DNA from: Blastocatellia bacterium
GTDB taxonomy: Bacteria; Acidobacteriota; Blastocatellia; HR10; J050
DNA length: 43,217 nucleotides
NCBI GenBank assembly: GCA_026985075.1
Contig: JALSQX010000048.1
Span: forward strand, 1-43,217
Reading direction: 5' to 3'
Shown: positions 3,684 to 19,421 of the stretch, in pieces
Numbering within the stretch: position 1 is the stretch's first letter
Layout of the letters: every line of letters begins with the position of its first letter
The notes under the pieces: generated by a model
Seen by the model: only the letters and a program-made list of their open reading frames with translations
Databases searched by the model: none
Told to the model about the DNA's origin: nothing
Program-made: the position numbers and the translations under genes

Positions 3684-4592
3684 CTATTTCCGGAGCAGTT
3701 TTTTCTTGATATCCGGCCAGAATTCTTTGCCCAGCACAAAGGCGACGACATCTAATCCCACCATGATGCCGAAGCGGCGGAACGTCGGTCCGACGCCAAT
3801 GCGCTGGTGACCGGGCGTATTCCGCTCCCAGAGATTGGCCAGAGCGCTGGCCGTCAGGTCTCCGCCGAGCTGGGCGATATTGACGCGCCGTCGACCATCG
3901 CGACTCTCGGTCACGAAGACGCGACTCATGGCGTAGAGGAGGCGTGCGCCGAAGCCGCGTCGCCTGGAGGGCCGATAGCGGGGGTCCTGATGGAAGATGA
4001 TCGGATAGAGGCCGGACGTCAGAAACCTCTTGGAGCTGGTGGTTCCCCACTGAATGGCGTATCGGGAGAGCGCATCGGCCACCTTATCGCCTCGATCCTT
4101 CTGCGGTTGCGGGCGTTCACGGAGTTGGATGATCGTCGCACTCAGTGCGGGGAGAACATAGGTCCCAGGACTGAGGAAAGCCCGCTTCGCGCCATAGATC
4201 AATTTCTCTCTCGCCGTCCACTTGGGCGGCGCGCGGCGTGACGTCTGGGCGGGCGTCGCCTCTCTATCGTCCCGCGCTGGGGAGCGCCCGTTTCCTCCGA
4301 ATGCGCCAGGGAAGAATCTCCCTCTCTGGAGCAAAGGATGGAGGGGGACCATTCCGCCGACGCGGACGCGCTGGTCGGCGATCGGTTTCCATGCGGGCAC
4401 CGGATGGATCATTTCCGGCATGCGGGCCACTTCATCGGATGGCCGTTTGATGGACGCCGTTTGAGCCCATGCCGGCTCACCGATCAGCAGAGGAACCACC
4501 AGCATTCCCATCCAGAGGAACCTCGCGCGCTTCCTGCTGGCTGGACGGGCGGAGAACATCACAGCAGTCTTCGGCACCCCGGATCGCCTCAT
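3684..4592 (-). CDS. exported or membrane protein of unknown function
   Basis: From the chosen start (ATG at 4592, other ATGs upstream at 4610, 4622 and 4628) the product is about 302 residues. A basic N-terminus and hydrophobic core (FLWMGMLVVPLLIGEPAWAQT) look like a Sec signal peptide cleaved after AWA. The mature part has a moderately hydrophobic region with the strings LPALSATIIQL, GLYPIIFHQDPRYR and RLLYAMSRVF, and ends EFWPDIKKKLLRK. I associate this layout with a common acidobacterial uncharacterised family, but that is recollection and not a search. It lies 185 bp downstream of the HgcAB-like gene on the same strand and may be the last gene of that transcript. The start is uncertain. 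Confidence 0.7.
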   Translation of the reverse strand: MRRSGVPKTAVMFSARPASRKRARFLWMGMLVVPLLIGEPAWAQTASIKRPSDEVARMPEMIHPVPAWKPIADQRVRVGGMVPLHPLLQRGRFFPGAFGGNGRSPARDDREATPAQTSRRAPPKWTAREKLIYGAKRAFLSPGTYVLPALSATIIQLRERPQPQKDRGDKVADALSRYAIQWGTTSSKRFLTSGLYPIIFHQDPRYRPSRRRGFGARLLYAMSRVFVTESRDGRRRVNIAQLGGDLTASALANLWERNTPGHQRIGVGPTFRRFGIMVGLDVVAFVLGKEFWPDIKKKLLRK

Positions 4593-4777
4593 AGCACGGT
4601 TCAACCTCATTACGGTCGACATGATCATGATCCACAGCCGGGATCTTCTCACCGCACGGGGTGACCTCGATGGGTCACCGGCTCCGGCTCGTCCCTCGAT
4701 ACCTCCAGCCCGACGGAGCCTTCTGGTGGAGAGTCGTTCTCCAGCGATCATCAGCGTGCGGTTGAATTGGCCGCGGC

Positions 4778-5917
4778 TCACTTCATGCGTTGCCCGAGAA
4801 GATTTAATTTGAATCTTCGGATCGTCTCCGGAGCGATCGTCTCGCCAGTCGGGCTCTGAAAAGACAGCGCGTCGAAAGGACACTGCACGATGCACGCCCC
4901 ACACTGGACGCAGAGGTGCCCCCTCGGTCGGGTTGCCCGATGTTGTCGGTGATCAACGTCGAAGCAGTTCCTCGGACAGACCTGTTCACAGAAGCCCGCT
5001 CCGCGACACGTGTTTTCGTCAAGGACGACTTCCAGCATGCGATCTTCATGCAATCCGCTCTTGTAGACCGGCGTGCTCCCCATGAGATCGAGACTGAGAA
5101 CGAGAACGACCACCAGTGAAGCGAATCCCCATCGCCATACGACGTCCCAGGAGAGAATCCCCTCCCAATTCGCATAGCCGACGACACCCAGCATGAAGGC
5201 TCCCCAGAGTATGAGTTGCAGGCCACCGCGCCCGAAGTCGAAGAATACGAATCCCACGCGCTTTCCCTCGGGACGCAGCCATCGGCTGTACAGGGGAAAC
5301 GAGAGGAAGATCAACAAGGCGAGTCCCCACACCAGGAGGGCGAGGGGAATGCTCCCGTCGGGCCACACCACCTGCGCGGCGAGCGCGGAGATGACGGAAA
5401 TAGGAAACGCCCAGGCCGCCGCCATCTCGAGCCGCTGCGTCCAAGGAAACGCCACCTGACGCATGGCCGGCGTCTTCTCGAATCCATGATCGATGAAAGC
5501 AGGAATGTCGCCCGCATAGACCGGTCCCCAGATGACCTTCCATCCGGTCTTTCTCTGGACGACGGAGGCCTCCACGCCAGTCGCCGCCAATTGAGGCAGA
5601 ATCACTCGCCGATGAGCGACACGTTGCTCGATGCCACTGGTCTTCAGAGCCGAGATGACATCATGATTGGTCAGATGTCCGCCCGCCGCCGCGCACCACA
5701 CGTTGATCCCACGACTATTGGCGATGAGAAGATAACAATCGAGACCTCGTAGTGCCCGTCGGACTCTCTCCACCGTCAGGTGATAATTCCCGGTGAGCAG
5801 GACGGGAGAGTGTTCATCAGGGTCTCCGATCACCCGCAGGCCGGTCGCACAGGGGATGGGGAGGACCCGGAGGAGCGTCTCCATAATGTTGATGAGCACA
5901 TAGCGCAGCTCATTCAT
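4778..5917 (-). CDS. HgcA-HgcB-like corrinoid protein/ferredoxin fusion
   Basis: A 379-residue protein. Residues 40-165 match the corrinoid-binding domain of HgcA: a cap-helix-like INVWCAAAGG (71-80, Cys75), then HRRVILPQLAATGV and GPVYAGDIPAFIDHGF. About four membrane helices follow (168-186, 190-210, 233-250, 260-281). Residues 300-350 are a ferredoxin domain like HgcB. Genuine HgcA has N(V/I)WCAAGK. Here GK is replaced by AG. The first iron-sulphur motif is Cys304-x2-Ala307-x2-Cys310-x3-Cys314, lacking the second Cys, while the second (336, 339, 342, 346) is complete. The C-terminal Cys pair of HgcB is absent. It overlaps the methyltransferase stop by 8 bp after GAGGAATCCAGG. It probably carries out a corrinoid methyl transfer other than mercury methylation; the substrate is unknown. 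Confidence 0.88.
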   Translation of the reverse strand: MNELRYVLINIMETLLRVLPIPCATGLRVIGDPDEHSPVLLTGNYHLTVERVRRALRGLDCYLLIANSRGINVWCAAAGGHLTNHDVISALKTSGIEQRVAHRRVILPQLAATGVEASVVQRKTGWKVIWGPVYAGDIPAFIDHGFEKTPAMRQVAFPWTQRLEMAAAWAFPISVISALAAQVVWPDGSIPLALLVWGLALLIFLSFPLYSRWLRPEGKRVGFVFFDFGRGGLQLILWGAFMLGVVGYANWEGILSWDVVWRWGFASLVVVLVLSLDLMGSTPVYKSGLHEDRMLEVVLDENTCRGAGFCEQVCPRNCFDVDHRQHRATRPRGHLCVQCGACIVQCPFDALSFQSPTGETIAPETIRRFKLNLLGQRMK

Positions 5918-6581
5918 CCTGGATTCCTCGCGGCTTTCGACTCACGATCTCGATGAAGTCCTCAAGCCGACTCCGCCTGATCGAGAGGATGGAGAAGCCT
6001 TTCTCCTGAAGCCTCTCGGGCAACTGATCGATCGCTCGCGTCGTCGTCTGGGTGAGCAGATAGGTGATGACGGCGAGCGGGCAGCGGATGAGCCGGGCGA
6101 GCATTCTCTTCGGGAGGCTTTCCGGGTTGGCTTCATCGGCGACGAGGAGCAGACCGCCGGGTTTCAAAATTCTTTTCACCTCATCGAGCGTATAGGTCAG
6201 TTCATCCTCGGTCAGTTCTGAGAAGCAAAGGCCGCTCATGACAACATCATAGCTCTCCGATGGCTCATTTCCAAGCTCGGCGACGCCCATTTCCGAGAAC
6301 TCGATAGTCGCCGTGAAGCCGGCGCCTCGGGCTCGTTGCTCGGCTTTCTCCAGCATCTGAGCATTGACGTCGATGCCTTTCACGCGGGCTCCTCTCTCTG
6401 CCGCTCTGAGCGTGAGAGCGCCGGTCCCACATCCCAGATCGAGGACGCGTTGCCCTTCTTGGATATGAGAAGCGAGTCGATCGTAGGCGCGCTCCAACCG
6501 TCCCAACGTCAACCAGCGGATGCCCCGGTCGTATCGATCCGGCGCCGATTCCAGAATCTTCATCAGGACGTAGGTGCTCAT
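5910..6581 (-). CDS. cpaM: SAM-dependent methyltransferase, CpaM type (corrinoid protein-associated)
   Basis: A 223-residue class I methyltransferase. The N-terminal block MSTYVLMKILESAPDRYDRG and the following LTLGRLERAYDRL are, as I recall, the hallmark of the CpaM family found beside HgcAB-like fusions. SAM-binding motif I is VLDLGCGTGALTL (about 46-58), followed by KGIDVNAQMLEKA. ATG 6581 forms an ATGA overlap with the stop of the thioredoxin-like gene and is preceded by AAGGGAG. Its own 3' end overlaps the fusion gene start by 8 bp, so the three genes are translationally coupled. It may supply a methyl group to the corrinoid protein or to the final acceptor. The acceptor is not deducible. 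The family name is from memory and was not checked. Confidence 0.85.
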   Translation of the reverse strand: MSTYVLMKILESAPDRYDRGIRWLTLGRLERAYDRLASHIQEGQRVLDLGCGTGALTLRAAERGARVKGIDVNAQMLEKAEQRARGAGFTATIEFSEMGVAELGNEPSESYDVVMSGLCFSELTEDELTYTLDEVKRILKPGGLLLVADEANPESLPKRMLARLIRCPLAVITYLLTQTTTRAIDQLPERLQEKGFSILSIRRSRLEDFIEIVSRKPRGIQDE

Positions 6582-7063
6582 CCGGTGCTCCCTTCGATCG
6601 ATGATGAGCCTCGGATCAAGGCGGCCAACTGCTCGCTGGTGGCGCATCCGAAGATTCGCCGGCCTTGGACATCCACGACGGGCACGGCGCGAATACCTTG
6701 AGCGATGAGAAGGTCCGGCTTGAGCGTGACGTCTACTTCCTGGAGAGCGAATCCCATCTCCTTCTGAAGGGCGCGGAGTCGTTGTCGGACTAACGGGCAG
6801 AACGGGCAACCCAGCGCCGTGTAGAGCGTGACCTCGGTCGGGACTCGACTGGTATTCTCGGGCCAGCGATCATCGACGCGGCCATAACCCAGATAGCGGG
6901 AGAGCGCGGGGAACGTGCGAATGTAGGCCCAGTGAGCGAGCGGCGCAATCATCACCCACACGATGGCCAGGATGTACGCCCCCTTCACGATGAATATGAC
7001 CAGGCCGCCGATGAAGATCGCCCAGCTCAAATAGATGAAGCTGATGTGACAGTATTGTTTCAT
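6578..7063 (-). CDS. membrane-anchored thioredoxin/glutaredoxin-like protein
   Basis: A 161-residue protein. Two hydrophobic helices (about 8-27 and 29-48) are followed by a thioredoxin-fold domain with active site Cys86-Pro-Phe-Cys89 (ALGCPFCPLVRQRL) and the cis-proline loop AVPVVD (126-131). A further Cys140 sits near the end. The start at 7063 is set by GGAGGGAGAACTC before the ATG; the frame upstream is longer but reads into a non-coding gap. It overlaps the methyltransferase by ATGA. Likely role: thiol-disulphide exchange at the membrane, perhaps keeping the corrinoid or iron-sulphur protein or its thiol ligand reduced. That role is inferred from context only. Confidence 0.82.
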   Translation of the reverse strand: MKQYCHISFIYLSWAIFIGGLVIFIVKGAYILAIVWVMIAPLAHWAYIRTFPALSRYLGYGRVDDRWPENTSRVPTEVTLYTALGCPFCPLVRQRLRALQKEMGFALQEVDVTLKPDLLIAQGIRAVPVVDVQGRRIFGCATSEQLAALIRGSSSIEGSTG

Positions 7064-7929: not shown

Positions 7930-8760
7930 TTAGATGTCTTGCTTCCATAAAAGTCGGTTGGCGATGATCAAAGGGATGATGATCCAGAGCCCGATCATGG
8001 CCATCACCAGGATCATCACGCCGGTCGTTCCGCCCAGGGTGCGTACCAGCAGGGCGCCGGCGGGGCCGAACATTTCCCGACCACCGAGGAGAATCAATCC
8101 GGCCACGCGCACGATGTCGACCGGATTCCCGAATAGAGAGAACAGGGTGAACGCATTGGCCATGGTCGGCTTCATGAGAAAGGTCACGCCGATGACCAGG
8201 AGATCGTAAAAGATGACGAAGAAGAACCAGAGGAACAGAGCCAGTCCGAAAGCGCTCGCCCGTCTATGCGCCGCGATGGCCGCCAAGATGGCCAGACTGA
8301 GGAAGGCCAATCCTAAGCCGAGCGCCAATCCAACGAACATGAGATAGCGCAACGAGCCGTTCGCCCCAACGTTCACCGCGATGATGACGCCGGCCAGCCC
8401 GAACCCGATGAGCGTGGAAACGAGAATGGAGCCGAACAATCCCAACGTCTTCCCCAGCAGGATCTCGCTTCGACTGATGGGTTGAGCGAAGAGGAGGTCA
8501 TTGGCCGCCTTCTCGCTGGTGAAACTCAGCGTCCCCATGAGCAGGGCCATCAGAGGGACGATATACAGAACCAGGTTGAGCAGACTGGCCGAGGTGCGCG
8601 TGAACGACTGAAAGCCGGCATATCCGGCCGTCGTCAATCCAACGGTGGCGATGCCCAATGCCAGGACACCGAAGACGAGCGCGAAGATGAGCGTCCATTT
8701 GCTCCGAACGGTGATTTTCAGTTCCTGGCTGGCGATGTGTCGCATCACGTCCACGTCCAT
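7930..8760 (-). CDS. nosY: NosY, ABC transporter permease for NosZ maturation
   Basis: A 276-residue membrane protein with about six helices, of the ABC-2 permease type. It starts MDVDVMRHIASQELKITVRSKWTLIFALVFG, the usual NosY N-terminus, and contains SEKAANDLLFAQPISRSEILLGK, the ABC-2 coupling region. NosY with NosF and NosD forms the complex that supplies sulphur and helps assemble the CuZ centre of NosZ. It begins 3 bp after nosL stops. The ATG at 8760 has only a weak upstream GGGATCG; ATG 8745 is an alternative. Confidence 0.93.
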   Translation of the reverse strand: MDVDVMRHIASQELKITVRSKWTLIFALVFGVLALGIATVGLTTAGYAGFQSFTRTSASLLNLVLYIVPLMALLMGTLSFTSEKAANDLLFAQPISRSEILLGKTLGLFGSILVSTLIGFGLAGVIIAVNVGANGSLRYLMFVGLALGLGLAFLSLAILAAIAAHRRASAFGLALFLWFFFVIFYDLLVIGVTFLMKPTMANAFTLFSLFGNPVDIVRVAGLILLGGREMFGPAGALLVRTLGGTTGVMILVMAMIGLWIIIPLIIANRLLWKQDI

Positions 8761-8763
8761 GGA

Positions 8764-9210
8764 TCAACGATCCCACGTCTCCCAGAGCTCAGCGAATTGG
8801 AGCACCTGACCGCGATGCTGTTGGGCAAAGGCCTCGGCGGCGCGACGTTCCTCGAAGGCCACCAGGTGCGAGCCCATGGGTGTGCGGAGTTCCGGGGCGT
8901 AGACGAAGAACGCCCGCTCGGCCGGCAACCAGTGCCGGCGATGATAATCATTGACGAAGAACGCGCGGGCCGTGTCCCTCTGTTTGGTCATCCGGACGTA
9001 GTGAATCAGGCATCCAATGTCGTCGAATTTGAAGACTTCTCCATCGGCATTGATGAACTCGGCGGCGAACTGCTTCTCTGAGATGGCCATGCGACAGAAT
9101 GCGCACATGTCTTCGTTGAGCTGGAGAGGAACGGGCTCGGGTCGTCCTTCGGTGCACCCACCGAGCAACAACCCCATCACCAGGAGCATGTCCAGCCACT
9201 TAGGCCTCAT
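8764..9210 (-). CDS. nosL: NosL, copper-binding lipoprotein chaperone
   Basis: A 148-residue protein with a short signal peptide and a lipobox ending GGC (lipidated Cys19). The copper motif MCAFCRM (35-41) is the NosL hallmark, followed by FINADGEVFKFDDIGCLIHY. NosL delivers Cu(I) to apo-NosZ in the periplasm. ATG 9210 is preceded by GGGAG and overlaps the nosF stop by 11 bp. The frame extends upstream into nosF, but the lipoprotein signal fixes this start. Confidence 0.95.
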   Translation of the reverse strand: MRPKWLDMLLVMGLLLGGCTEGRPEPVPLQLNEDMCAFCRMAISEKQFAAEFINADGEVFKFDDIGCLIHYVRMTKQRDTARAFFVNDYHRRHWLPAERAFFVYAPELRTPMGSHLVAFEERRAAEAFAQQHRGQVLQFAELWETWDR

Positions 9211-9904
9211 GTCGTTCTCCCGCCCGAGCCAGGTAAAGATCTTCCAGCGAAATCTCTTCGGCACCAGAAGTGAGCGCCACCAGCCGGCCATTCATCATGA
9301 TCGCCACCCGATCGGCCAGGTGTTGCACCTCGGAGAATACGTGCGTGGCGAAAACGATCGTCGTCCCTTCGTCTCGCAGACGGCGCATGAGATCCCGAAA
9401 CCGAATGACTCCCTCCAGATCGAGACTCAACGTGGGCTCGTCCAGAATGAGATAGGGGGCATTGGGCAAACAGGCCACGGCCAGACCCAATCGTTGAATC
9501 ATCCCGCCGGAGAGTTCCCCGATGCGCTTCTCGGCAAAGCCATTGAAATTGAGTCCCGAGCGAGCGAGGAATTCGTCGATGCGGCTTGACGGCACGTCGC
9601 GAAGTCGGGCATAAAACTCCAGCACTTCGCGGGCCAGGAGTTGATCGTGAAAAGCCACCCGCTGTGGCAGAAAACTGATAAACTGGCGGGCTGCTTTCGG
9701 TTGTTCTCTCACGTCTATCCCATTGATGACAATCTGTCCCGACGTGGGGATGGTGAGGCCGGCAATGGCCTTGAGCGTGGTCGTCTTGCCGCTCCCGTTT
9801 GGACCGAGCAAGGCCAGGATTTCGCCCTCGCCAATTGCCAACGACAGATCATCGACGGCGACCACGCCATCATATTTTTTCACCAGATGCTTGATCTCGA
9901 TCAT
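9200..9904 (-). CDS. nosF: NosF, ABC transporter ATPase for NosZ maturation
   Basis: A 234-residue ATPase with Walker A GPNGSGKT (34-41), signature LSGGM (131-135), Walker B LILDEP (152-157) and switch His in FATHVFSEV. It powers the NosDFY complex that serves NosZ CuZ assembly. ATG 9904 overlaps the nosD stop (ATGA) and has GGAGGGAG upstream. A longer in-frame start at 10009 lies inside nosD and lacks family support. Confidence 0.95.
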   Translation of the reverse strand: MIEIKHLVKKYDGVVAVDDLSLAIGEGEILALLGPNGSGKTTTLKAIAGLTIPTSGQIVINGIDVREQPKAARQFISFLPQRVAFHDQLLAREVLEFYARLRDVPSSRIDEFLARSGLNFNGFAEKRIGELSGGMIQRLGLAVACLPNAPYLILDEPTLSLDLEGVIRFRDLMRRLRDEGTTIVFATHVFSEVQHLADRVAIMMNGRLVALTSGAEEISLEDLYLARAGERHEA

Positions 9905-11277
9905 CGCCGCTGCTCCCTCCAGAGGATCGTCAGCGAGACGCCGAATAGGGCGAGGGAGAGAAAAGCCGATGGTGGCGAGGGGGATCGGCGCTGGAAACGG
10001 CCCGGCCATATCCGCTCTGGAATATCCAATGGGGGCGGCCGCATCAACGGGAAAGGATCGCGCTCATGCGATCCTTCGATGACGGGGAACAGCGCTTCGG
10101 CCCGGGCCAACGCTTGGGCGGCCGGACTGTATAAATAGAGGCGCAATCGCGCATGGCGTCCTTCCAGGTACTGGAAGATGTTCTGTATCCGGAATGGGAG
10201 ATCCCCGATCCCATCTCCATCCAGATCATAACCGGTGTATCCATCCCAGTAGTTTCCTCGTCGGTGGTGAGACCAGTGGGTCGTCGTTCGCCGTCCGACC
10301 AATCGAAGTGGACTCAGGTTGTCAATGAAGACATTCTCGGTGAACGTGTTGTCCAGCGCGCTGCTGAACAGTTGAATGGCGGCATCGTTCCCGATGATCA
10401 GATTGCGTCGGAACAGATTGTGCATAGAATTGTCCAGGAACAGTCCCACACCATTATCGGCGATGACATTCTGTTCGGCCAGCGAGCGATCACAATCTTT
10501 GAACAAGACGCCCAATGCGCTGTATCCCACGCGATTGCGAAAGAAGACGTTGCGCCGGAAGGTCAACTCATCGGAGTACATGAGCGCCGCTCCGGCGTAG
10601 TTGCCGTACAACAGGTTTTCTTCGAACAGGCTCACGTTGGAGTACATGTAGTGCAACCCGTAGCGCGAGCGTTCGATGCGATTCCGGCGCACGACGTTGT
10701 GATCGGCGTGATCGAAGTAGATGCCATCGCGAACCCGGACGATGACGTTATCCGCGAAGGTGTTGCCGGTGCAGTTCCAGAGGTGGATGCCGTTTCCTCG
10801 TCGACCAATATCCAATTCGCTCCGACCCTCGATGCGATTCCCAACGATCGTGTTGTCGTTGGCCGCGGAGAGGTAGATCCCGAACAAGATGTGGCGGAGC
10901 TCATTATCAGCGATCGTATTCCCATCGGACTTGACGAGGATGCCGGCATCGTTGTCTTCCAGTCGGAGACCGCTCTGTTCGATGCGAAATCCGCGCACCG
11001 TGCACCGATCGGCCGTGATGGTGATGACGCTCCCCTTCCCGTCACCGCGAATGGTGGGGTGATCGATGCCCCGGAGTACGAGAGGCTTGTCAATGACCAA
11101 TTTCTCCCTGTAGAGCCCGGGCGAGACGAGAATGGTATCTCCCGGCCGAGCGGCGATGAGCGCCGCCCCGATCGTCCGAAAGGCCGCTCCCGTTGAACCC
11201 ACAGTCAGCGTGTGCGTCGGCGCGGCGAGCGCCAGGGCGACAAAGAGCCAACCGTTGATGAGCATCGCCTGTATCAT
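9901..11277 (-). CDS. nosD: NosD, periplasmic copper/CuZ maturation protein
   Basis: A 458-residue protein with a signal peptide (MIQAMLINGWLFVALALAAPTH region). A long right-handed parallel beta-helix of carbohydrate-binding/CASH type repeats follows, visible as recurring N-x-I-x-x-N-x-x-x strings such as NGIHLWNCTGNTFADN and YGLHYMYSN. The domain ends with the NosD-typical GNYWDGYTGYDLDGDGIGDLP. A hydrophobic segment close to the C-terminus (AFLSLALFGVSLTILW) probably contacts NosY in the membrane. The start at 11277 sits 4 bp after the NosB-like stop, with GAGG just upstream. Confidence 0.95.
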   Translation of the reverse strand: MIQAMLINGWLFVALALAAPTHTLTVGSTGAAFRTIGAALIAARPGDTILVSPGLYREKLVIDKPLVLRGIDHPTIRGDGKGSVITITADRCTVRGFRIEQSGLRLEDNDAGILVKSDGNTIADNELRHILFGIYLSAANDNTIVGNRIEGRSELDIGRRGNGIHLWNCTGNTFADNVIVRVRDGIYFDHADHNVVRRNRIERSRYGLHYMYSNVSLFEENLLYGNYAGAALMYSDELTFRRNVFFRNRVGYSALGVLFKDCDRSLAEQNVIADNGVGLFLDNSMHNLFRRNLIIGNDAAIQLFSSALDNTFTENVFIDNLSPLRLVGRRTTTHWSHHRRGNYWDGYTGYDLDGDGIGDLPFRIQNIFQYLEGRHARLRLYLYSPAAQALARAEALFPVIEGSHERDPFPLMRPPPLDIPERIWPGRFQRRSPSPPSAFLSLALFGVSLTILWREQRR

Positions 11278-11281
11278 GACC

Positions 11282-11908
11282 TCATTCTTCCGCCGGTCTG
11301 GCCGACATGACAATCGCCACGAACAAGAGTATAGCAAACAGCACCAACGAGTACGATGCTAATCCCGGCCAGCTATACACGGTGAAATTGGCGATCTGCT
11401 CCTTTCCGATGAGAGGCGGCGTGAATGGTTTCACCTTGATGGCGGCATCGGGCGCCAGATTGTGACCATAGGTGTAGAGCCGATAATAGAAACTCCACAA
11501 CGAGAAGAGCCCGAAGTAACTGAACAGCACGAACACGTCCACGAGATTGGACATCTTGCCGATGACCATGGCGCGGAGAGCGAGGAGAATGAGGGCTCCA
11601 ATCCCAAAGGGAATCCACTTGAATTCGCTGAAATCGCTCTCCAGGAGCGGTCGCATGCCGATGTAATGATTCAACTCGTTGATCTCTCGCAAGTCATCCC
11701 GTTGCGGCGTCTTCCCTCCCTCCAGCTTGTAGGCGTAGATGTGGAGCTTCAATCCATCGGGATACTGATTGGAGTAAAAGGTCATGTTCCACAGAGGAAA
11801 GTAATACGCCGGGAGCAGCACGACCACGGCCACCAGAATGAGGATGCGACTGTTCAGCGTGAGCGGCAGATCGAAGAAGATGTTCGCTTTGTCCAGCCAC
11901 TTTTCCAT
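11282..11908 (-). CDS. nosB: NosB-like membrane protein of clade II nos clusters
   Basis: A 208-residue protein with helices at about 22-41, 100-120, 122-145 and 182-203. A periplasmic loop contains YPDGLKLHIYAYKLEGGKT and REINELNHYIGM. A membrane protein right after nosZ is characteristic of clade II clusters, where it is called NosB; its biochemical role is not established. GGGAGG precedes the ATG by 5 bp. The call rests on position, topology and my recollection of the loop motif. Confidence 0.72.
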   Translation of the reverse strand: MEKWLDKANIFFDLPLTLNSRILILVAVVVLLPAYYFPLWNMTFYSNQYPDGLKLHIYAYKLEGGKTPQRDDLREINELNHYIGMRPLLESDFSEFKWIPFGIGALILLALRAMVIGKMSNLVDVFVLFSYFGLFSLWSFYYRLYTYGHNLAPDAAIKVKPFTPPLIGKEQIANFTVYSWPGLASYSLVLFAILLFVAIVMSARPAEE

Positions 11909-11940
11909 GAGATCCTCCCTTTCCTGCTCGGCCCGGAGTC

Positions 11941-11969
11941 GGGAGGGCGAGGCGGGCCCTCGCCCTCCC
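11941..11969 (-). repeat. 12-bp perfect hairpin between nosZ and the NosB-like gene
   Basis: GGGAGGGCGAGG (11941-11952) pairs perfectly with CCTCGCCCTCCC (11958-11969) around a 5-nt loop. It lies directly after the nosZ stop and before the next start, and no T-tract follows in the direction of transcription. It could be an attenuator, a pause site or a 3' stabiliser for abundant nosZ message. Confidence 0.65.
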
Positions 11970-11983
11970 TCTTCCGCTTCACG

Positions 11984-13837
11984 CTATCGCGGCTTGACGA
12001 GGAGGTATCCTTGCATCTCCTGGTGCAGTGCCGAACAGAAATTGGTGCAGTAGTAAGGGAATACTCCAGGCTTATTGGCGACGAACTCGATCGTTTTGGT
12101 CTCTCCGGGATCGACGACGACGTTGATGTTGTACTGGCAGATGGCGAATCCGTGCAGTTCGTCGGTCGTTTGTTCGATATTGGTCAGGTGGATGGTCACC
12201 CGATCGCCCTGGTTGACCTCGATCTTGGTCGGCGCGAAGCTGCTGCGAACGGCAGTCATCTTCACGATCACGTGATTGCCGCGGCGGGTGACGCCGGCTT
12301 GATTGACATCCCAGATGGCGTTGGGATTCTTGCTCTCTTCTTTGGGATAGACCTCGATGGGATGCAATTTGTCGGCGCGAATCGCCTGAGCGTAGTGTGG
12401 TTCCGGCTCGGTGAACGCATCGTAGAGCAACTTCATCTTCTCGCCGGTAATATCGATGAGTTGCGAGCACTCCGGTTGCGAGGGACCGACGCTCAGATGC
12501 TTGCCGTGCGAGAGCTTGTTCAGTGCGATGACGTACTTGCCATCGGGATGCATGGTGTCGCCGCCGGGAATGCAGAGGTGACCGATATTGTACGTGATGG
12601 GGATCTTGTCCACCACCGCCCAATCGCCGCCCAATCGCCACTTGGCGATGGCGCTCTCCACGAACAAGCTCGTATAGGCGAATCCCTTGTCGTCGAACTG
12701 GGTATGGAGTGGCCCGAGACCCACGTTGACCTCAGCTTCTTTGACCGAATCGTAATTGAGCACGGGGATGCCATCCTCCTCACCGGTGAAGTCCTTGTTC
12801 TCGATGGCCTTGAGTATCTTCTCGAAGCTGAACACGGTGGTGATCTCCTGGAGTTTCCCACTGGCCACGATATAGTTCCCGTCGGGGCTCACGTCCACAC
12901 CGTGGGGGCTCTTGGCGGCGGGGATGAGATAGGCCAGACCTTTGACCTCTTTGGGATCGATGACCTTGGCGCCGCCGATGATCTTGTATTTGCCTTCCTT
13001 GACCGCTTGCTCGGCGGCTTTCCAGTTGACGGCGATGACGTAGTCCCGGTCTTTCTGTGAAGCGGTCACCTCCAGCTTGCCGGTCGCGCGTTCGGAGTTG
13101 TAGCAGCTCCAGAATGCCCAATCTTCGCTCGGCCCCTTGCCACATGAGCCGAGATCCCAATTGAACGGCGGCGTGAGCAGTTCCCACCCCAGGCTCATCT
13201 GGCCCGTCTCCGGATCGACGGCCACCGCGCCCACCACACCTCGGTATTTGCTGGCGTAGTCCTCGATGCTCGCGTAGGTTCCCAGGGGAAGGGGAACGGA
13301 GAATCGAGTGGCGATGAGGACGTATTCCGTGTTGTTGGTCACGAAGCTACAACCGTGATTGCCCGAGACGTTGGGAATGGGGCCGAAGATTTGCTTGGTT
13401 TTGAAATCTCGGAGATCGATGCGCGCGATCCGAGCGTTGGCATTATCGTTGACAAACAGCCAACGACCATCGTAATCGCCGTTGGTCTTGCTCAACGCCG
13501 GATGGTGAACATCGCCCCAGGTGAACTCGCCGAGCATCTTCTTGCTCTCTTCATCGTATCCATAGCCCGTCGAGGGATACGGCGAGAACACCGGAATGGT
13601 GGCGATGTGTCGCATCGAGGGAATGCCCGCGACGAAGACCTGTCCAGAATGGCCTCCGCTGTAGAAGAGATAGTACTCGTCCTGATCGCCTGGCGGCACA
13701 TAAGTGGCAATGGCCGCTTCGGCCACCGCGCCGCGTTGTTCGGTCGGTTTCTGTCGGCAGGCCACGAAGGCGAGCGAGACCGCCAGCGCACACAGGACGC
13801 CTAATCCAAACCAGGTCCATTGCGTTCGGTTCCTCAT
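11984..13837 (-). CDS. nosZ: NosZ, nitrous oxide reductase, clade II (Sec type)
   Basis: A 617-residue protein that reduces N2O to N2 in the periplasm. The N-terminus has a basic start, a hydrophobic core and no twin-arginine motif, so export is by Sec. FVAC at Cys27 may be a lipobox. The beta-propeller carries CuZ-type histidines (GDVHHPALS, NVSGNHGC, KSPHGVDVSPDG, GPLHTQF, DTMHPDG, KLSHGKH). The C-terminal cupredoxin domain has the complete CuA set: DELHGF, then Cys597, Cys601, His605 and Met608 in CTNFCSALHQEM. AAAGGAGG precedes two adjacent ATGs (13840 and 13837); the second has the better spacing. It is fifth in an operon with its own electron-transfer chain. Confidence 0.98.
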   Translation of the reverse strand: MRNRTQWTWFGLGVLCALAVSLAFVACRQKPTEQRGAVAEAAIATYVPPGDQDEYYLFYSGGHSGQVFVAGIPSMRHIATIPVFSPYPSTGYGYDEESKKMLGEFTWGDVHHPALSKTNGDYDGRWLFVNDNANARIARIDLRDFKTKQIFGPIPNVSGNHGCSFVTNNTEYVLIATRFSVPLPLGTYASIEDYASKYRGVVGAVAVDPETGQMSLGWELLTPPFNWDLGSCGKGPSEDWAFWSCYNSERATGKLEVTASQKDRDYVIAVNWKAAEQAVKEGKYKIIGGAKVIDPKEVKGLAYLIPAAKSPHGVDVSPDGNYIVASGKLQEITTVFSFEKILKAIENKDFTGEEDGIPVLNYDSVKEAEVNVGLGPLHTQFDDKGFAYTSLFVESAIAKWRLGGDWAVVDKIPITYNIGHLCIPGGDTMHPDGKYVIALNKLSHGKHLSVGPSQPECSQLIDITGEKMKLLYDAFTEPEPHYAQAIRADKLHPIEVYPKEESKNPNAIWDVNQAGVTRRGNHVIVKMTAVRSSFAPTKIEVNQGDRVTIHLTNIEQTTDELHGFAICQYNINVVVDPGETKTIEFVANKPGVFPYYCTNFCSALHQEMQGYLLVKPR

Positions 13838-13915
13838 CATAAGTCCTCCTTTCGTTGTATGAATGTTTCGGCCACGGCCATTGGCCATGCTCACTTCGCT
13901 CTCCTCATCCGAAGG

Positions 13916-15106
13916 TCATCGACCCCCGGCCTTTTGCGCCTGTTGCTCCAGCTTCTTCTCGTAGGCTCTCTTCAGCAGTGAGATCGCTTCCAGCTTCTCA
14001 GCTTCGGTCAGGTGAATCTGTCGCGAGAGGACGACGGCCATCGTTCCCGTGGGATTGGCCAGGAAATCTTCCAACGTCCGGCCGAAACGCCGCTGCACAT
14101 CGACGTAGGCTTCGGCCAGATCGGGACCGATCTTGGTTGCCGAGATGATCCCCAAGCTGCTGACCGAGTGGCAGATGAAACAGCCGTGTTTGACGAAGAA
14201 CGCTCCTTCGCCTTGAAGCATCTGCCGTTCGCGCTCCAGCTCCTCCGGCGTCGGTTTGTCCACCGGTTTGGCTCCCGGAATGTAGTCGACCGGCAGGTTC
14301 ACATTCTTCCAGCTCATCACCAGGAGGGCCAGCGCTTGGGCATCGCGACTGTTGAACCCGAAGTCGGGCATGACGGTGGTCGGCGACACGGCCTTGGGAT
14401 TCTTGAAATGAGCCACGTGCCAGGCGAACACCGTCTTCTTGCCAATCACTCGGGAGTAGTCGTATTGCTCGGGCTTCTTATCCCCCACGAAGGTGAGATC
14501 GGGTCCAATGCGGCCGCCGCGACCGTTGATCTTGTGGCAGGCGCGGCACCCTTTGTCGCGCACCAACCGCTTGGCGTGATTGATCGTGGGGGCCCCTTCG
14601 GTCTGGCGATCATAGCGATGACAGAGATTACAGTTCATCTCCATGAGCGCGCGCTTGCTCCTCACCAGATAAAACTGGGCCAGCCTTTGACCCAACAGTG
14701 GTTCGTTCCAGTGTTCGACGAAGCCGTGGGCGGCTTCCGTCTCCGTCGCATACCCTTGACCGCCGTGACAGATCGTGCAGCCGTAGCGTCGGAGCGGGTG
14801 CTTCTGGAGGATCTCCTTGGGGTGCGTCCGGAAAGGCTGGGGCGCGTTTTCCAGTCCCTTCCATTCCACGCCTTGATGACAGGTGATACAGCGATCGACG
14901 CGCCCGAGTTCTTTGACCCAGATTTGCTGTAACCCTCGAGGTACCTGCGCCGCTCGATCCTCGCCGAATTTCTCCGCCACCAGAGCGCGGAATTCGGCTT
15001 GATACCTTTTCCACTCAGGCGTGAGCGCTCCCCAGTAGATGACGCCAGTGAGGACCAGCGCCAGCGCGCCAAACGAATAGAGCCAAAGAGAGTCTCTCTG
15101 ATACAC
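13916..15106 (-). CDS. pentaheme cytochrome c, membrane-anchored
   Basis: A 396-residue protein with an uncleaved N-terminal helix (about 10-28) and five CxxCH haem sites: CITCH (73), CTICH (110), CNLCH (159), CRACH (187) and CFICH (309). The N-terminal part is a multihaem module. The fourth and fifth sites sit in class I cytochrome folds with downstream Met candidates (VMPDFG and possibly GTMAVV). It lies 12 bp after cytochrome b and 78 bp before nosZ, so it most likely carries electrons from the Rieske/cytochrome b complex to the CuA site of NosZ. No matching symbol is used because naming of nos cytochromes varies. Confidence 0.92.
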   Translation of the reverse strand: MYQRDSLWLYSFGALALVLTGVIYWGALTPEWKRYQAEFRALVAEKFGEDRAAQVPRGLQQIWVKELGRVDRCITCHQGVEWKGLENAPQPFRTHPKEILQKHPLRRYGCTICHGGQGYATETEAAHGFVEHWNEPLLGQRLAQFYLVRSKRALMEMNCNLCHRYDRQTEGAPTINHAKRLVRDKGCRACHKINGRGGRIGPDLTFVGDKKPEQYDYSRVIGKKTVFAWHVAHFKNPKAVSPTTVMPDFGFNSRDAQALALLVMSWKNVNLPVDYIPGAKPVDKPTPEELERERQMLQGEGAFFVKHGCFICHSVSSLGIISATKIGPDLAEAYVDVQRRFGRTLEDFLANPTGTMAVVLSRQIHLTEAEKLEAISLLKRAYEKKLEQQAQKAGGR

Positions 15107-15118
15107 GGTGCGCCTCCG

Positions 15119-16435
15119 TCAGAATCGTCGTGGGAGCTCTGGCCAGCTCTCCCATGGCCAGTAGAAATCCCAGAATGGCCCTCGCATGAATGTACCGATG
15201 ATCGTCAGCGTGACGACGGCCAAGACGATGATGAGAAAGACGACATTCTGTCGCCGTCGTTCCCGCGGCCACCATACGCCCACCGTTTGCAGGGGCGTCT
15301 TGTCCAGATAAGGCCACGCCGCCAGCCAGATGAGAAGCACAGCGGGAATGAGAATCCCTCCCACCAATGCGCCATTGAGCGTCCATCCGCCAATATGGAT
15401 GGTCGTGTCGGCGACCAGTTCCTGCAACCAGAGGAAGTACCATGGGGCCTTCGCCGGATTGGGCGTCTCGCTGGGATTGGCCGGTTCCTCCAATGGAGCT
15501 CGGAACAGTATGGTCAGAAGGGCGGACACGGCGAACGTTCCCAGCATCACCGCCGCCAACCGACGCGTCAGATGAGGTGAGGCCTGAACCGTGTGTTCAT
15601 CCTCATCGACCAGCGCCGTCTCCACATGGACGGTGGCGCCACTGGCGATGCCGAGCAGGGAATACGTCTTGCTCTTCGCCGGCGGCCTCTTCTCCAGGCG
15701 TTGAGTGAGCGCCAGATGATCCACGCAGGCCAGTCCGCCATCTTTCCTGATCCGCCACATGTGGTAGGAGAAGAGGACCAGCACCAGCGTGGGCAGGAAG
15801 AAGCAGTGGAGGACGTAAAACCGAATGAGAGCGTTCTGCTCAATGGTAGTGCCACCAAGCAACAAGAAGCGGATCTTCTCCCCGACGATCGGAGCGGCGC
15901 TGGCGATGTTCGTCCCCACGGTGATCGCCCAGTAGGCCAATTGATCCCAGGGAAGCAGATAACCGGTGAACGAGAGGAGCAGCGTGGCCAGCAGCAGAAT
16001 CACCCCCACGATCCAGTTGAGCGGGCGATTCTGATGGACGGCCGTGCCATTCTTGTAAGCGCCGGTGAGGAAGACGCGTACCATGTGGAGAAACACGACG
16101 GCCACCATCAAATGGGCCGCAATCCGATGCAGTCCGCGCAAAAACCACCCGTACGAGACGGTGTACTCCAGATCTTTCACCGAAAGATAGGCGCGCTCCA
16201 CCGAAGGGACGTAGAGGAACATGAGGATGACACCGGTGATGGTCAGAATGAGAAACAGGACGGCGGAGATCGTTCCCAGCCAGAAGGAGTAACTCCAGGA
16301 GAGACTTCGGTGGGTCACTTTGGCCGGAAACCAGTGCAGCAAAAAGTTGCGGACGATGGAGTCGCCCGCCTCGCGGCTGCTGGCCGGCCGCCAGGTCCAG
16401 GTCAATTTTTCCCAGGTCGATCGTTTCGTGGCCAT
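15119..16435 (-). CDS. cytochrome b of a Rieske/cytochrome b (bc-type) complex
   Basis: A 438-residue protein uniting the haem-binding N-terminal half and the quinol-site C-terminal half. Haem ligands are His103 and His117 in helix B and His210 and His225 in helix D; the 14-residue gap in helix D is the b6-like spacing. The Qo loop has APWY (330-333) instead of PEWY, so the usual Glu is missing. GYLLPWDQ is conserved. About eight to nine membrane helices are predicted. It sits between the Rieske and pentaheme cytochrome genes. It probably oxidises menaquinol and delivers electrons towards NosZ. Confidence 0.93.
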
Positions 16436-16628
16436 GGTGCGATTCCTTCACAACACGTGTGAAGCCTCGGGTGGAAACGGTGAAACATCGGGCCGAAGGC
16501 GCGCGGCGGAGCCTCCGAAGGGTTATGGAAGGAAGCCGTGCGTGCCGTCTTCCACCCCCCCGCTCGCCTCGCCGCCGTTCCCGTTTTTCGGCGTTCGCTG
16601 TTCATGGTTTCAGTCCTCCTCGGACGCT

Positions 16629-17207
16629 TCACACGGTGAGTCTGAAGTCGTGCCCCACCTCTTGGGACATATCGACGATGAGCTGGCCATCGTCAGGGGC
16701 GATTTCCAGCTTGTAGTAGGCTAGTGGTCGCGGTGCCGGACCGGCATAATTGGTGCCGTCGCCGTAGTACTTCGAGCCGTGACAGGGACAGTGAAATTCG
16801 ACGCTCTCTTGGAATTGACGATTCCCGATCTTGACCATCTTGGGTCGGTTCAATCGTTGCAGTTTCACCGTGCAGCCGAGATGCGTGCAGATGGCCGAGA
16901 TGGCATAGAACGTGTTTCCCTGACGGAAAATGAACACTCGCTTGTCCTCGAGGAACTGGACGCCTTCGCTGAATTGGTCGGGCGGCCCGACCTTGAATCG
17001 GCGGGGTTCTTCGTAAAGGACGTTGGGCACCAGCGAGCGGATGAAGGCGTAGATCTGACCGGCGATGGCCGCCAGAGTGGCGCCGATGCCCAGCCGCACG
17101 AGGAAAGATCGTCGCGACGTCTTCATCTCCGATGATTTCCATTCCTCACCCGCCTCAGACTGGGAGAGCGCGGGCGTCGCCTCCGGCGAGGGCTTCTCGT
17201 TCTTCAT
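16629..17207 (-). CDS. Rieske iron-sulphur protein
   Basis: A 192-residue protein. A Tat-like signal (SRRSFLVRLG at 31-40) is followed by a hydrophobic helix, and the [2Fe-2S] motifs are CTHLGC (Cys107, His109, Cys112) and CPCHGS (Cys140, Cys142, His143). The start at 17207 is supported by GGAGG nine bases upstream and makes a 53-bp overlap with the preceding oxidoreductase gene. ATG 17126 just before the Tat motif is an alternative. It is the high-potential electron acceptor of the quinol-oxidising complex, exported by Tat and anchored by its N-terminal helix. The 190-bp gap before cytochrome b contains no gene. Confidence 0.95.
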   Translation of the reverse strand: MKNEKPSPEATPALSQSEAGEEWKSSEMKTSRRSFLVRLGIGATLAAIAGQIYAFIRSLVPNVLYEEPRRFKVGPPDQFSEGVQFLEDKRVFIFRQGNTFYAISAICTHLGCTVKLQRLNRPKMVKIGNRQFQESVEFHCPCHGSKYYGDGTNYAGPAPRPLAYYKLEIAPDDGQLIVDMSQEVGHDFRLTV

Positions 17208-19107
17208 AGTAGAAAACCTCCATCGTCATGGCATCGGTTGGGCAGCGAATGGCACACAGCCCGCAGCGGATACATTTCTCATCGTCTTTGATCATCGCCG
17301 AGAGCGGCTGGTCCGGAGAGAGCCCGCGTGCGGCGATGATGGCCTCCTTGATCTCGGGATCGACATCGAGCTCATCCAGTGGCACGAGCTTGAGGCAATA
17401 TTCGGGACAGACGTCGACGCAGCGATTACAGAGCACACATTTCTCGGGATCGTAGATGGTTTGAATGTGACAGGAGAGACAGCGCTCGGCCTGTTGCCGG
17501 GCTTCCGCTTCATCGTAACCCACCTCCACTTCGGAGATGCCCGTCCGCCGATCGAGCGAGATGGTCGGGGGCGGCTGGCGACGGCGCTTCTCATAACCTT
17601 CCGGCATGACATAGCGGCGGGTGGGGATCTTCTCCACGGAGAGGTGAACCACCGGTCGCTCGGTGACGCCACGGAGATAGTCATCGATGGACAGAGCGGC
17701 GCGCTTGCCGTTGGCCACGGCTTGGATGAGATTGCGCGGACCAAAGGCGACATCGCCGCCGGCAAACACCCCTGGAGCCGTCGTGGCCAGCGTTTCCGGA
17801 TCGACCTTGATCGTCCCCTGGGGCGTGATGTCCACACCATCTTCGGGTCTCAGGAAGGAGAGATCGGCCCGCTGTCCGATGGCCAGGATGACCGTATCGG
17901 TGTCCATGACTTCGTGAATGCTCTCATCGTAAATGGGATTGAAGCGCCCGTGCTCGTCGTAGGTGCGCTTGACGCCGATGAGTTCGACGGCGCGCACCCG
18001 TCCGCCATCGCCCAGGAAACGGCGCGCTCCCCGCTGGGTGTGGAAGACGATGCCCTCCTTCCGCGCCTCTTCGAATTCCTCTCGACCTTGAGTGGTGCGC
18101 ATCACCGGCATCTCGTCGAACGACTCCAGACTGATCATGCGCACATCGGGCACCCCGGCGCGCACGGCGGCGCGCGCCGCATCTAATGCCGCGACCATCG
18201 CTCCCTCGACGGCGCGTTGCTCCGAGTCCATCTCCAGCGCCGTGCGCAGCGCCAGGCGCGCCGCGTCGAAAGCGACGAATCCACCGCCGATGACCAGCAC
18301 GCGCCGACCGAGATGCACGCGATAGCCGTGATTCACGTTGATGAGGAAGTCGATGGCTTTGATGACGCCATCCAGGTCAGCGCCCTCGATTTGCAGATCC
18401 CGTCCTCGCTGCGTCCCTACGCTCAGGAACACGGCCTGATACCCCAGCTCGCGCAATTCTCGAAGTCCGAACGTCTCGTTGAGCGGTCGATTCAACTCCA
18501 GCGTCACGCCCAGGCTGAGGATCTTGTCGATCTCCTTATCGATGATCGATCGCGCCAGTCGAAATTCGGGGATGCCGTGGACCATCATCCCTCCGGGCAT
18601 GTCCGTCGCCTCGAAAATGGTCACCTGATAACCCATCAGAGCCAGATCGTGCGCGCAGGCCAAGCCAGCGGGTCCGGCTCCGACGACGGCCACCTTTTGT
18701 CCCCGGGCCACGTTCATTCGGCTAGCCGTGAGCACCGGAAGGTGCCAGAGCGTCTTGTTGCCCGGCTCCGTTCCGCCATCGAACAACTTGTTCTGGGTAT
18801 CCGGTTCCATCGATTCCACGCCGTAGCGCTCGCAGACGAATCGCTTCAGCGCGCGAATGCTGATGGGCGCGTCGATCCTCCCTCGACGACAGTGATCTTC
18901 GCAGGGGGCAGCACAGATGCGACCGCACACTGAAGCAAAGGGATTCGGCGAGCGGGCCGTCAAATAGGCCTCCTCATATCGCCCTTCGGCGATGAGTTGA
19001 ACGTATCGACCGGCATCCGTCTTGATGGGGCAGGCCGCTTGACAGGGGATCATCCCCTTCCAGAATTCGATGTCTGGTATGATCGTCTTATACTTGGCCT
19101 CGCTCAT
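17155..19107 (-). CDS. GltD-like FAD/iron-sulphur NAD(P)H oxidoreductase, first gene of nos operon
   Basis: A 650-residue cytoplasmic protein. Residues 22-75 hold the Cys-rich dihydropyrimidine-dehydrogenase-type domain (PCQAACP; CGRICAAPCEDHC). An FAD site VVGAGPAGLA (141-150) and an NAD(P) site VIGGGFVAFDAA (272-283) follow. A second FAD contact is GVFAGGDVAFGP (446-457). The C-terminus has CLSCH (543-547) and two ferredoxin motifs, CVLCNRCVDVCP (557-568) and CIRCGLCAIRCP (612-623). This architecture moves electrons between NAD(P)H, FAD and several [4Fe-4S] clusters. Placement ahead of the Rieske gene, overlapping it by 53 bp, suggests it feeds electrons from NAD(P)H or ferredoxin to the quinone pool or the complex. 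AGGGAG precedes the ATG by 8 bp. The partner is unproven. Confidence 0.9.
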   Translation of the reverse strand: MSEAKYKTIIPDIEFWKGMIPCQAACPIKTDAGRYVQLIAEGRYEEAYLTARSPNPFASVCGRICAAPCEDHCRRGRIDAPISIRALKRFVCERYGVESMEPDTQNKLFDGGTEPGNKTLWHLPVLTASRMNVARGQKVAVVGAGPAGLACAHDLALMGYQVTIFEATDMPGGMMVHGIPEFRLARSIIDKEIDKILSLGVTLELNRPLNETFGLRELRELGYQAVFLSVGTQRGRDLQIEGADLDGVIKAIDFLINVNHGYRVHLGRRVLVIGGGFVAFDAARLALRTALEMDSEQRAVEGAMVAALDAARAAVRAGVPDVRMISLESFDEMPVMRTTQGREEFEEARKEGIVFHTQRGARRFLGDGGRVRAVELIGVKRTYDEHGRFNPIYDESIHEVMDTDTVILAIGQRADLSFLRPEDGVDITPQGTIKVDPETLATTAPGVFAGGDVAFGPRNLIQAVANGKRAALSIDDYLRGVTERPVVHLSVEKIPTRRYVMPEGYEKRRRQPPPTISLDRRTGISEVEVGYDEAEARQQAERCLSCHIQTIYDPEKCVLCNRCVDVCPEYCLKLVPLDELDVDPEIKEAIIAARGLSPDQPLSAMIKDDEKCIRCGLCAIRCPTDAMTMEVFYYEEREALAGGDARALPV

Positions 19108-19421
19108 GTGCTCGCTCCCTGTCTGCTCCGATGGCCTGTGATGCAAAGGGCGTTCCACACCACGCTCCCGGGGTCGGTGTCGCGAACGGTCGTCGGCTCA
19201 ACCGGGGCATCCTCCAGCAGATTCAGCACTTGATGACCGGACGGAGCCGGTGCAATGTCCCCCGGCCCGCCACCGATTGTGGGGAAATTCACCCACCTCG
19301 ATGGGGAATATTCCGCGGTAGACCGGATTCTCCGGTCGCGCCTCATCGCCATCACTCGTCTCATCAATGTCTTCATCCTCATCCAGGGAATTCATTCTAT
19401 GAGCTGATCCTCATGTTTGGC

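What the first reader, a model, noticed from the sequence alone, without database searches (positions are those of the whole stretch)
4778..5917. HgcA-HgcB-like fusion with altered cap-helix motif
The corrinoid domain matches HgcA along its length (NVWC, HRRxILPQL, GPVxAxDIPAFI) and is fused through membrane helices to a ferredoxin domain. The mercury-methylator signature NVWCAAGK reads NVWCAAAG, keeping the Cys but losing the Gly-Lys. This suggests a related corrinoid methyltransferase with a different substrate or chemistry.
Basis: partly seen in the sequence, partly recalled or inferred. Interest (0 to 1): 0.8.

Follow-up and report, generated by a model that had tools for sequence, protein, structure and literature searches.

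The report
HgcAB-like corrinoid protein with methyltransferase partner
The gene encodes a membrane vitamin-B12 protein fused to a ferredoxin that is a cousin of the bacterial mercury-methylating enzyme HgcAB but belongs to a separate, already named family whose substrate is unknown; comparing about 105 relatives shows that it works with its own S-adenosylmethionine methyltransferase and lacks the cysteines that handle mercury.

Summary
The minus-strand ORF 4778-5917 (379 aa) has an HgcA-type corrinoid domain with the Co-ligating Cys75, four membrane helices and a dicluster ferredoxin; the cap motif reads NVWCAAAGG instead of NVWCAAGKG. It is not an oddity: it scores 469 bits against NCBIfam NF043039 'HgcAB-like fusion protein' (cut-off 285), and the overlapping upstream gene is NF043040 'CpaM', a SAM methyltransferase. 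The non-GK cap marks a separate clade (67 rows, 93/92); true HgcA is its own clade (97/100). CpaM lies directly upstream of, or fused to, 61 of 63 testable HgcAB-like genes and 0 of 34 true hgcA genes. Ten loci carry natural CpaM-HgcA fusions, two with the ferredoxin too. The window protein lacks every HgcB cysteine needed for Hg methylation (Cys73, C-terminal pair) and the second Cys of ferredoxin cluster I. Most likely it is a membrane SAM:corrinoid methyltransferase: CpaM methylates Co(I), the Cys-ligated methyl-corrinoid passes the methyl to an unknown acceptor, probably not Hg, and the fused ferredoxin re-reduces cobalt. Known family, new member; the fusions, ferredoxin change and cap/CpaM switch were not found in the papers searched.

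The parts
4778..5917 (-). HgcAB-like fusion protein, 379 aa (corrinoid domain, membrane domain, dicluster ferredoxin)
5480..5860 (-). corrinoid-binding domain, residues 20-146
   Evidence: PF03599 at residues 20-141; structural match to CFeSP gamma 2ycl_A Z 18.9, 127 residues, 1.9 A
5678..5704 (-). cap motif NVWCAAAGG (residues 72-80); Cys75 is the predicted lower axial Co ligand; HgcA has G-K at 78-79
   Evidence: Cys 64/64 in relatives of this type and 36/36 in true HgcA; Lys79 column is G 62/64 against K 36/36
5090..5443 (-). membrane domain, four helices (residues 159-276); the fifth helix of HgcA is missing
   Evidence: AF2 helices 159-184, 186-205, 228-251, 257-276; hydropathy: 4 segments in 50 of 57 fusions (3 in the other 7), 5 in 30 of 37 unfused HgcAs
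4856..5032 (-). dicluster ferredoxin domain (residues 296-354)
4997..4999 (-). Ala307 at the position of the second Cys of cluster I (C304-x2-A307-x2-C310-x3-C314-P); predicts a 3-Cys cluster
   Evidence: second ligand not Cys in 41 of 67 HgcAB-like ferredoxins, Cys in 34 of 35 HgcBs
4787..4810 (-). C-terminal motif KLNLLGQR (residues 370-377), in place of the HgcB Cys tail
   Evidence: KLNLxGxR-type pattern in 28 of 41 proteins with the altered cluster I, 0 of 26 other relatives and 0 of 35 HgcBs
5910..6581 (-). CpaM, class I SAM-dependent methyltransferase, 223 aa; overlaps the HgcAB-like gene by 8 bp
   Evidence: NF043040 293 bits, cut-off 180; translation
6578..7063 (-). membrane-anchored glutaredoxin-like protein (CPFC), 161 aa; overlaps cpaM by 4 bp; not conserved with the pair outside this genus
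   Evidence: PF05768; translation; also in same-genus G396, 89%; absent from the other loci

Best explanation
CpaM and the HgcAB-like fusion form one membrane-bound SAM:corrinoid methyltransferase. Inferred cycle: the ferredoxin domain reduces the corrinoid to Co(I); CpaM binds SAM and transfers CH3+ to Co(I); Cys75 ligates the methyl-Co(III) from below, as Cys93 does in HgcA; the activated methyl is handed to an acceptor; cobalt is re-reduced. The acceptor in this clade is unknown and probably not Hg(II). Shown here: the domain anatomy, the family membership, the near-invariable CpaM linkage and the CpaM-HgcA fusions, the conserved cap Cys, and the absence of the HgcB mercury-handling cysteines. 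Inferred: that CpaM methylates cobalt rather than the acceptor, and that the acceptor is not Hg.
For: NF043039 and NF043040 hits far above cut-off. CpaM is directly upstream (typical overlap 4 bp) or fused in 60 of 62 testable relatives plus the window, and in 0 of 34 true hgcA loci with room upstream. Ten single-ORF CpaM-HgcA fusions, two with the ferredoxin in the same chain. The triple fusion L050 folds as one confident model (pLDDT 90.3, pTM 0.89) with a class I SAM methyltransferase at its N-terminus. CpaM and corrinoid-domain identities correlate, r 0.754, 0 of 2000 permutations as high. SAM is the methyl donor, via Cys-ligated methylcobalamin, in purified HgcAB (PMC11588087). The genome has no other PF03599 protein, hence no CFeSP of the Wood-Ljungdahl pathway, but has other B12-binding proteins. 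HgcB Cys73 and the C-terminal Cys pair, needed for Hg methylation (PMC7305189), have no counterpart. Two strains with fused hgcAB do not make MeHg.
Against: HgcAB accepts methyl from SAM without any added methyltransferase (PMC11588087), so CpaM need not be the Co-methylating subunit. CpaM resembles ordinary small-molecule and lipid methyltransferases and might methylate the final acceptor. No conserved neighbour names a substrate. Model coordinates could not be inspected, so the placing of the SAM site beside the corrinoid is untested. The motif block 71-80 has low model confidence (pLDDT about 61).
Confidence: 0.55

Rival explanations
1. It is a corrinoid methyltransferase in which the HgcA part takes methyl from SAM by itself, as in HgcAB, and CpaM acts on the acceptor side: it activates, or methylates a second time, the acceptor or product.
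For: HgcAB needs no separate methyltransferase for Co methylation (PMC11588087). CpaM is a class I methyltransferase similar to enzymes for small molecules and lipids and scores weakly with ArsM models.
Against: CpaM is near-obligate while other neighbours are not conserved. Presence of CpaM tracks loss of the cap GK, which would fit a role at the corrinoid. CpaM is fused directly to the corrinoid domain.
Confidence: 0.25
2. It is a genuine mercury methylator, HgcAB in fused form.
For: Same fold as the HgcAB model, Cys75 conserved, corrinoid-domain motifs shared.
Against: Separate clade; scores below the HgcA and HgcB cut-offs; no GK; no Cys73 or C-terminal Cys; fused strains P. furiosus and M. 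methylutens negative for MeHg.
Confidence: 0.06
3. On the acceptor: it methylates a soft metal(loid) other than Hg (As, Sb, Se, Sn) as a detoxification or signalling step.
For: One relative subclade has ArsR-type regulators upstream (L049, L051, L054) and Cys-rich ferredoxin tails (L044, L049, L051, L054, L055, L089). ArsR-like regulators also accompany true hgcAB (PMC7438021).
Against: The window clade has neither the ArsR gene nor any tail Cys. No ars or mer gene was seen beside the window pair.
Confidence: 0.25
4. On the acceptor: it methylates an organic or membrane-bound acceptor (thiol, lipid, quinone).
For: Scattered neighbours: PEMT-family methyltransferase at L016 and L052, fatty-acid hydroxylase/sterol desaturase at L017. 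In the window a membrane glutaredoxin is translationally coupled.
Against: Each neighbour is in one or two loci only; none is conserved.
Confidence: 0.2

Closest known systems
NCBIfam NF043039 HgcAB-like fusion protein with NF043040 CpaM
   Same: Both genes score well above the curated cut-offs (469.5 against 285; 293.4 against 180), full length, adjacent.
   Different: Nothing excludes membership. The altered ferredoxin cluster I and the KLNLxGxR C-terminus belong to a subset of the family that includes the window.
HgcA/HgcB mercury methylation pair
   Same: Cys-containing cap, CFeSP-type corrinoid domain, membrane domain, dicluster ferredoxin; SAM as donor in HgcAB.
   Different: Separate clade; AAGK replaced by AAxGG; one chain instead of two; four membrane helices instead of five; cluster I lacks one Cys; Cys73 and the C-terminal Cys pair absent; CpaM present.
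Corrinoid iron-sulfur protein gamma subunit (CdhE/AcsC, PF03599) of the Wood-Ljungdahl pathway
   Same: Corrinoid domain fold (2ycl_A Z 18.9).
   Different: From established knowledge and PMC7305189: no Cys on the cap, no membrane domain, a different Fe-S domain, and methyl from methyl-THF via a TIM-barrel enzyme.
Fused hgcAB of Pyrococcus furiosus and Methanococcoides methylutens
   Same: Fused hgcAB gene; no MeHg made in culture (PMC5893877).

Membership tests
NF043039 HgcAB-like fusion | full-length score above the curated cut-off | tested here: met
   469.5 bits, cut-off 285, residues 9-352 cover profile 2-350 of 350
NF043039 HgcAB-like fusion | CpaM encoded next door | tested here: met
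   NF043040 293.4 bits, cut-off 180, overlapping upstream gene
NF043039 HgcAB-like fusion | falls in the HgcAB-like clade | tested here: met
   inside the 67-row clade, support 93/92; smallest starred set 19 rows, 100/97
HgcA (NF040863) | score above the curated cut-off | tested here: not met
   170.9 bits, cut-off 275
HgcA | N(V/I)WCA(A/G)(A/G)K signature | tested here: not met
   NVWCAAAG; definition quoted from PMC8163782
HgcA | cap Cys for Co ligation | tested here: met
   Cys75 present and invariant; ligation itself not tested
HgcA | placement in the HgcA clade | tested here: not met
   37 other rows form that clade at 97/100
HgcA | five membrane helices | tested here: not met
   four in the model and by hydropathy
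HgcB (NF040864) | two CxxCxxCxxxCP motifs | tested here: not met
   first motif has Ala307 for the second Cys
HgcB | Cys73 and C-terminal Cys | tested here: not met
   no Cys after the second cluster motif in the window protein; 32 of 35 HgcBs have at least one, and the other three read TGA at the Cys73 position
HgcAB | Hg methylation activity | not testable with these tools
   needs a biochemical assay
Corrinoid proteins | binds cobamide | not testable with these tools
   fold match only
7Fe-type ferredoxin | holds a [3Fe-4S] cluster | not testable with these tools
   predicted from three Cys in cluster I; needs EPR

The most novel reading that the evidence does not exclude
The cap GK of HgcA and the CpaM subunit are alternative solutions for loading methyl from SAM onto a Cys-ligated corrinoid, and the CpaM-type enzymes, spread across bacteria and archaea, carry out an undescribed corrinoid methyl transfer to an acceptor other than Hg, in this clade with a ferredoxin that has a three-Cys cluster I.
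Probability: 0.3. Interest if true: 0.75.

Novelty: new member of a known kind. Interest (0 to 1): 0.42.

Why it matters
SAM was reported in 2024 as the unexpected methyl donor of HgcAB. The natural CpaM-HgcA and CpaM-HgcA-ferredoxin fusions link a SAM methyltransferase physically to an HgcA-type corrinoid domain, and give single-chain proteins on which the first half-reaction can be tested without making methylmercury. The sequence rules found here (cap GK, Cys73 and tail Cys, no CpaM for HgcAB; the opposite for most of this family) also help to avoid counting these genes as mercury methylators in metagenome surveys.

Tried and rejected
Nitrous-oxide link: the pair sits next to a nosZ/D/F/L/Y cluster, but none of the relatives has nosZ or nosD within the stretch held, so adjacency is taken as local. 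Glutaredoxin as an obligate partner: only in this genus. Conserved third gene: clustering of 605 neighbouring ORFs (greedy ORF calls) gave nothing widespread beyond CpaM; TetR-type genes in six loci, ArsR in three. Plasmid carriage: no match in 72,556 plasmids. Literature on CpaM or CpaM-HgcA fusions: none found. Papers on HgcA mutagenesis and selenoprotein HgcB were not held. A site-differentiated [4Fe-4S] cluster that binds SAM, as in radical SAM enzymes, was considered for cluster I and judged unlikely, since the domain is a ferredoxin fold.

Full report
OBSERVATION. The ORF at 4778-5917 on the minus strand (379 aa, ATG) is as described. Pfam finds the C-terminal part of CdhD (PF03599) at residues 20-141 and a dicluster ferredoxin at 297-351. 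The motif is G70-I-N-V-W-C75-A-A-A-G-G-H. NCBIfam assigns it to NF043039, HgcAB-like fusion protein, at 469.5 bits (cut-off 285), full length, while HgcA (170.9, cut-off 275) and HgcB (44.7, cut-off 99) are not reached. The next gene upstream, 5910-6581, overlapping by 8 bp, is NF043040, 'corrinoid protein-associated methyltransferase CpaM', 293.4 bits (cut-off 180). The gene before that, 6578-7063, overlaps cpaM by 4 bp and encodes a membrane-anchored glutaredoxin-like protein. A same-genus genome (G396) keeps the three genes (92, 81 and 89% identity).

RELATIVES. A scan of genome contigs returned 80 loci, and a phylum-wide search of 396 genomes gave 9 above the family cut-off, patchily placed. 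The closest relatives (60-67% identity) come from Desulfobacterota, Chloroflexota, Neomarinimicrobiota and other members of the window's phylum, which suggests horizontal spread; organisms are known only from record titles, mostly MAGs.

CAP MOTIF. In 64 relatives without GK, the Lys position is Gly in 62; in 36 true HgcAs it is Lys in all. The cap Cys is invariant in both. A careful tree of 110 corrinoid domains puts the 67 HgcAB-like rows on one side of a branch (93/92) and 37 true HgcAs in their own clade (97/100), with CFeSP-type proteins as outgroup. The change in the window is therefore an old family trait. One locus, L057, reads GE, carries a CpaM-HgcA fusion, and sits apart with a long branch.

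CPAM. Among relatives, 60 loci have CpaM directly upstream on the same strand or in the same reading frame; of the seven without, five are cut off by the contig end, leaving 60 of 62 testable (61 of 63 with the window). None of the 34 true hgcA loci with at least about 0.9 kb upstream has it (counts by hand from that table). Ten loci have CpaM and the HgcA domain in one ORF; in L045 and L050 the ferredoxin is in the same chain, 590-591 aa. Parsimony needs at least two changes between fused and split. CpaM and corrinoid-domain identities correlate over 59 loci, r 0.754, none of 2000 permutations as high. This co-inheritance and fusion is the main evidence that CpaM and the corrinoid protein work as one enzyme.

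FERREDOXIN. In the window, cluster I reads C304-x2-A307-x2-C310-x3-C314-P, so the second Cys ligand is missing; it is not Cys in 41 of 67 HgcAB-like ferredoxins and is Cys in 34 of 35 HgcBs. A [3Fe-4S] cluster, or a [4Fe-4S] cluster with another ligand, is predicted; the tree needs at least three changes of this residue. HgcB needs Cys73 and at least one C-terminal Cys for Hg methylation (PMC7305189). All 35 HgcBs found here have a tail Cys or, in L058, L060 and L074, a TGA at the Cys73 position, consistent with selenocysteine. The window protein has no Cys after the second cluster; instead it ends in KLNLLGQR, a motif found in 28 of 41 proteins with the altered cluster and in none of the others. 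A different subclade (L044, L049, L051, L054, L055, L089) does have a Cys-rich tail, and three of its loci have an ArsR-type regulator upstream, so acceptors may differ within the family.

TOPOLOGY. Fused proteins have four hydrophobic segments (50 of 57; three in 7), unfused true HgcAs five (30 of 37; four in 7). Dropping helix five would keep the fused ferredoxin on the same, cytosolic, side as the corrinoid domain. This is an inference from hydropathy and the model.

STRUCTURE. AF2 on the window protein gives pLDDT 89.6, pTM 0.87. Foldseek and VIA-align give CFeSP gamma for the corrinoid domain (Z 18.9, 127 residues, rmsd 1.9) and the HgcAB model 9a0b_A for residues 2-288 (Z 16.3, 262 residues, rmsd 4.8). 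AF2 on the natural triple fusion L050 gives pLDDT 90.3, pTM 0.89, with an N-terminal class I SAM methyltransferase.

MECHANISM. Purified HgcAB takes methyl from SAM, via methylcobalamin with a Cys ligand (PMC11588087). The genome here has no other PF03599 protein and no HgcB above cut-off, but has other B12-binding proteins. The best reading is a SAM:corrinoid methyltransferase in which CpaM loads the corrinoid and the methyl goes to an unknown acceptor. Mercury is unlikely for this clade because of the missing cysteines. The two cultured strains with fused hgcAB made no MeHg (PMC5893877), but their sequences were not compared here. Whether CpaM methylates cobalt or the acceptor is not settled.

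STATUS. Ordinary as to membership: a clear member of a named family. The fusions, the GK/CpaM exchange, the cluster I change and the helix count were not found in the papers searched, but that library is partial. Limits: top-scoring hits only, MAG contigs, start sites chosen by rule, and weak support for some deep branches.

Noticed in passing
window 7930-19158, minus strand: A nosZ (Sec-dependent type), nosD, nosF, nosL, nosY cluster with cytochrome b, cytochrome c and Rieske genes lies directly upstream of the glutaredoxin-cpaM-hgcAB-like genes, all on one strand.
   Followed up: partly
L058, L060, L074 (hgcB downstream of hgcA): TGA stands at the HgcB Cys73 position in three HgcB genes, with the reading frame open beyond it, which fits selenocysteine.
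   Followed up: partly
L002:3262-3759, L003:2524-3021: A methylated-DNA-cysteine methyltransferase gene follows the HgcAB-like gene in two related loci.
   Followed up: no
L016:8777-9283, L052:969-1628: A PEMT-family membrane methyltransferase is encoded beside the pair in two loci.
   Followed up: no
L049, L051, L054: ArsR-type regulators with a Cys-rich N-terminus lie upstream of HgcAB-like genes whose ferredoxin tails are Cys-rich.
   Followed up: partly
window 3684-4904, minus strand: Protein with a signal-peptide-like stretch and no Pfam or NCBIfam match, downstream of the fusion gene; pieces of it are also present there in the same-genus genome G396.
   Followed up: no
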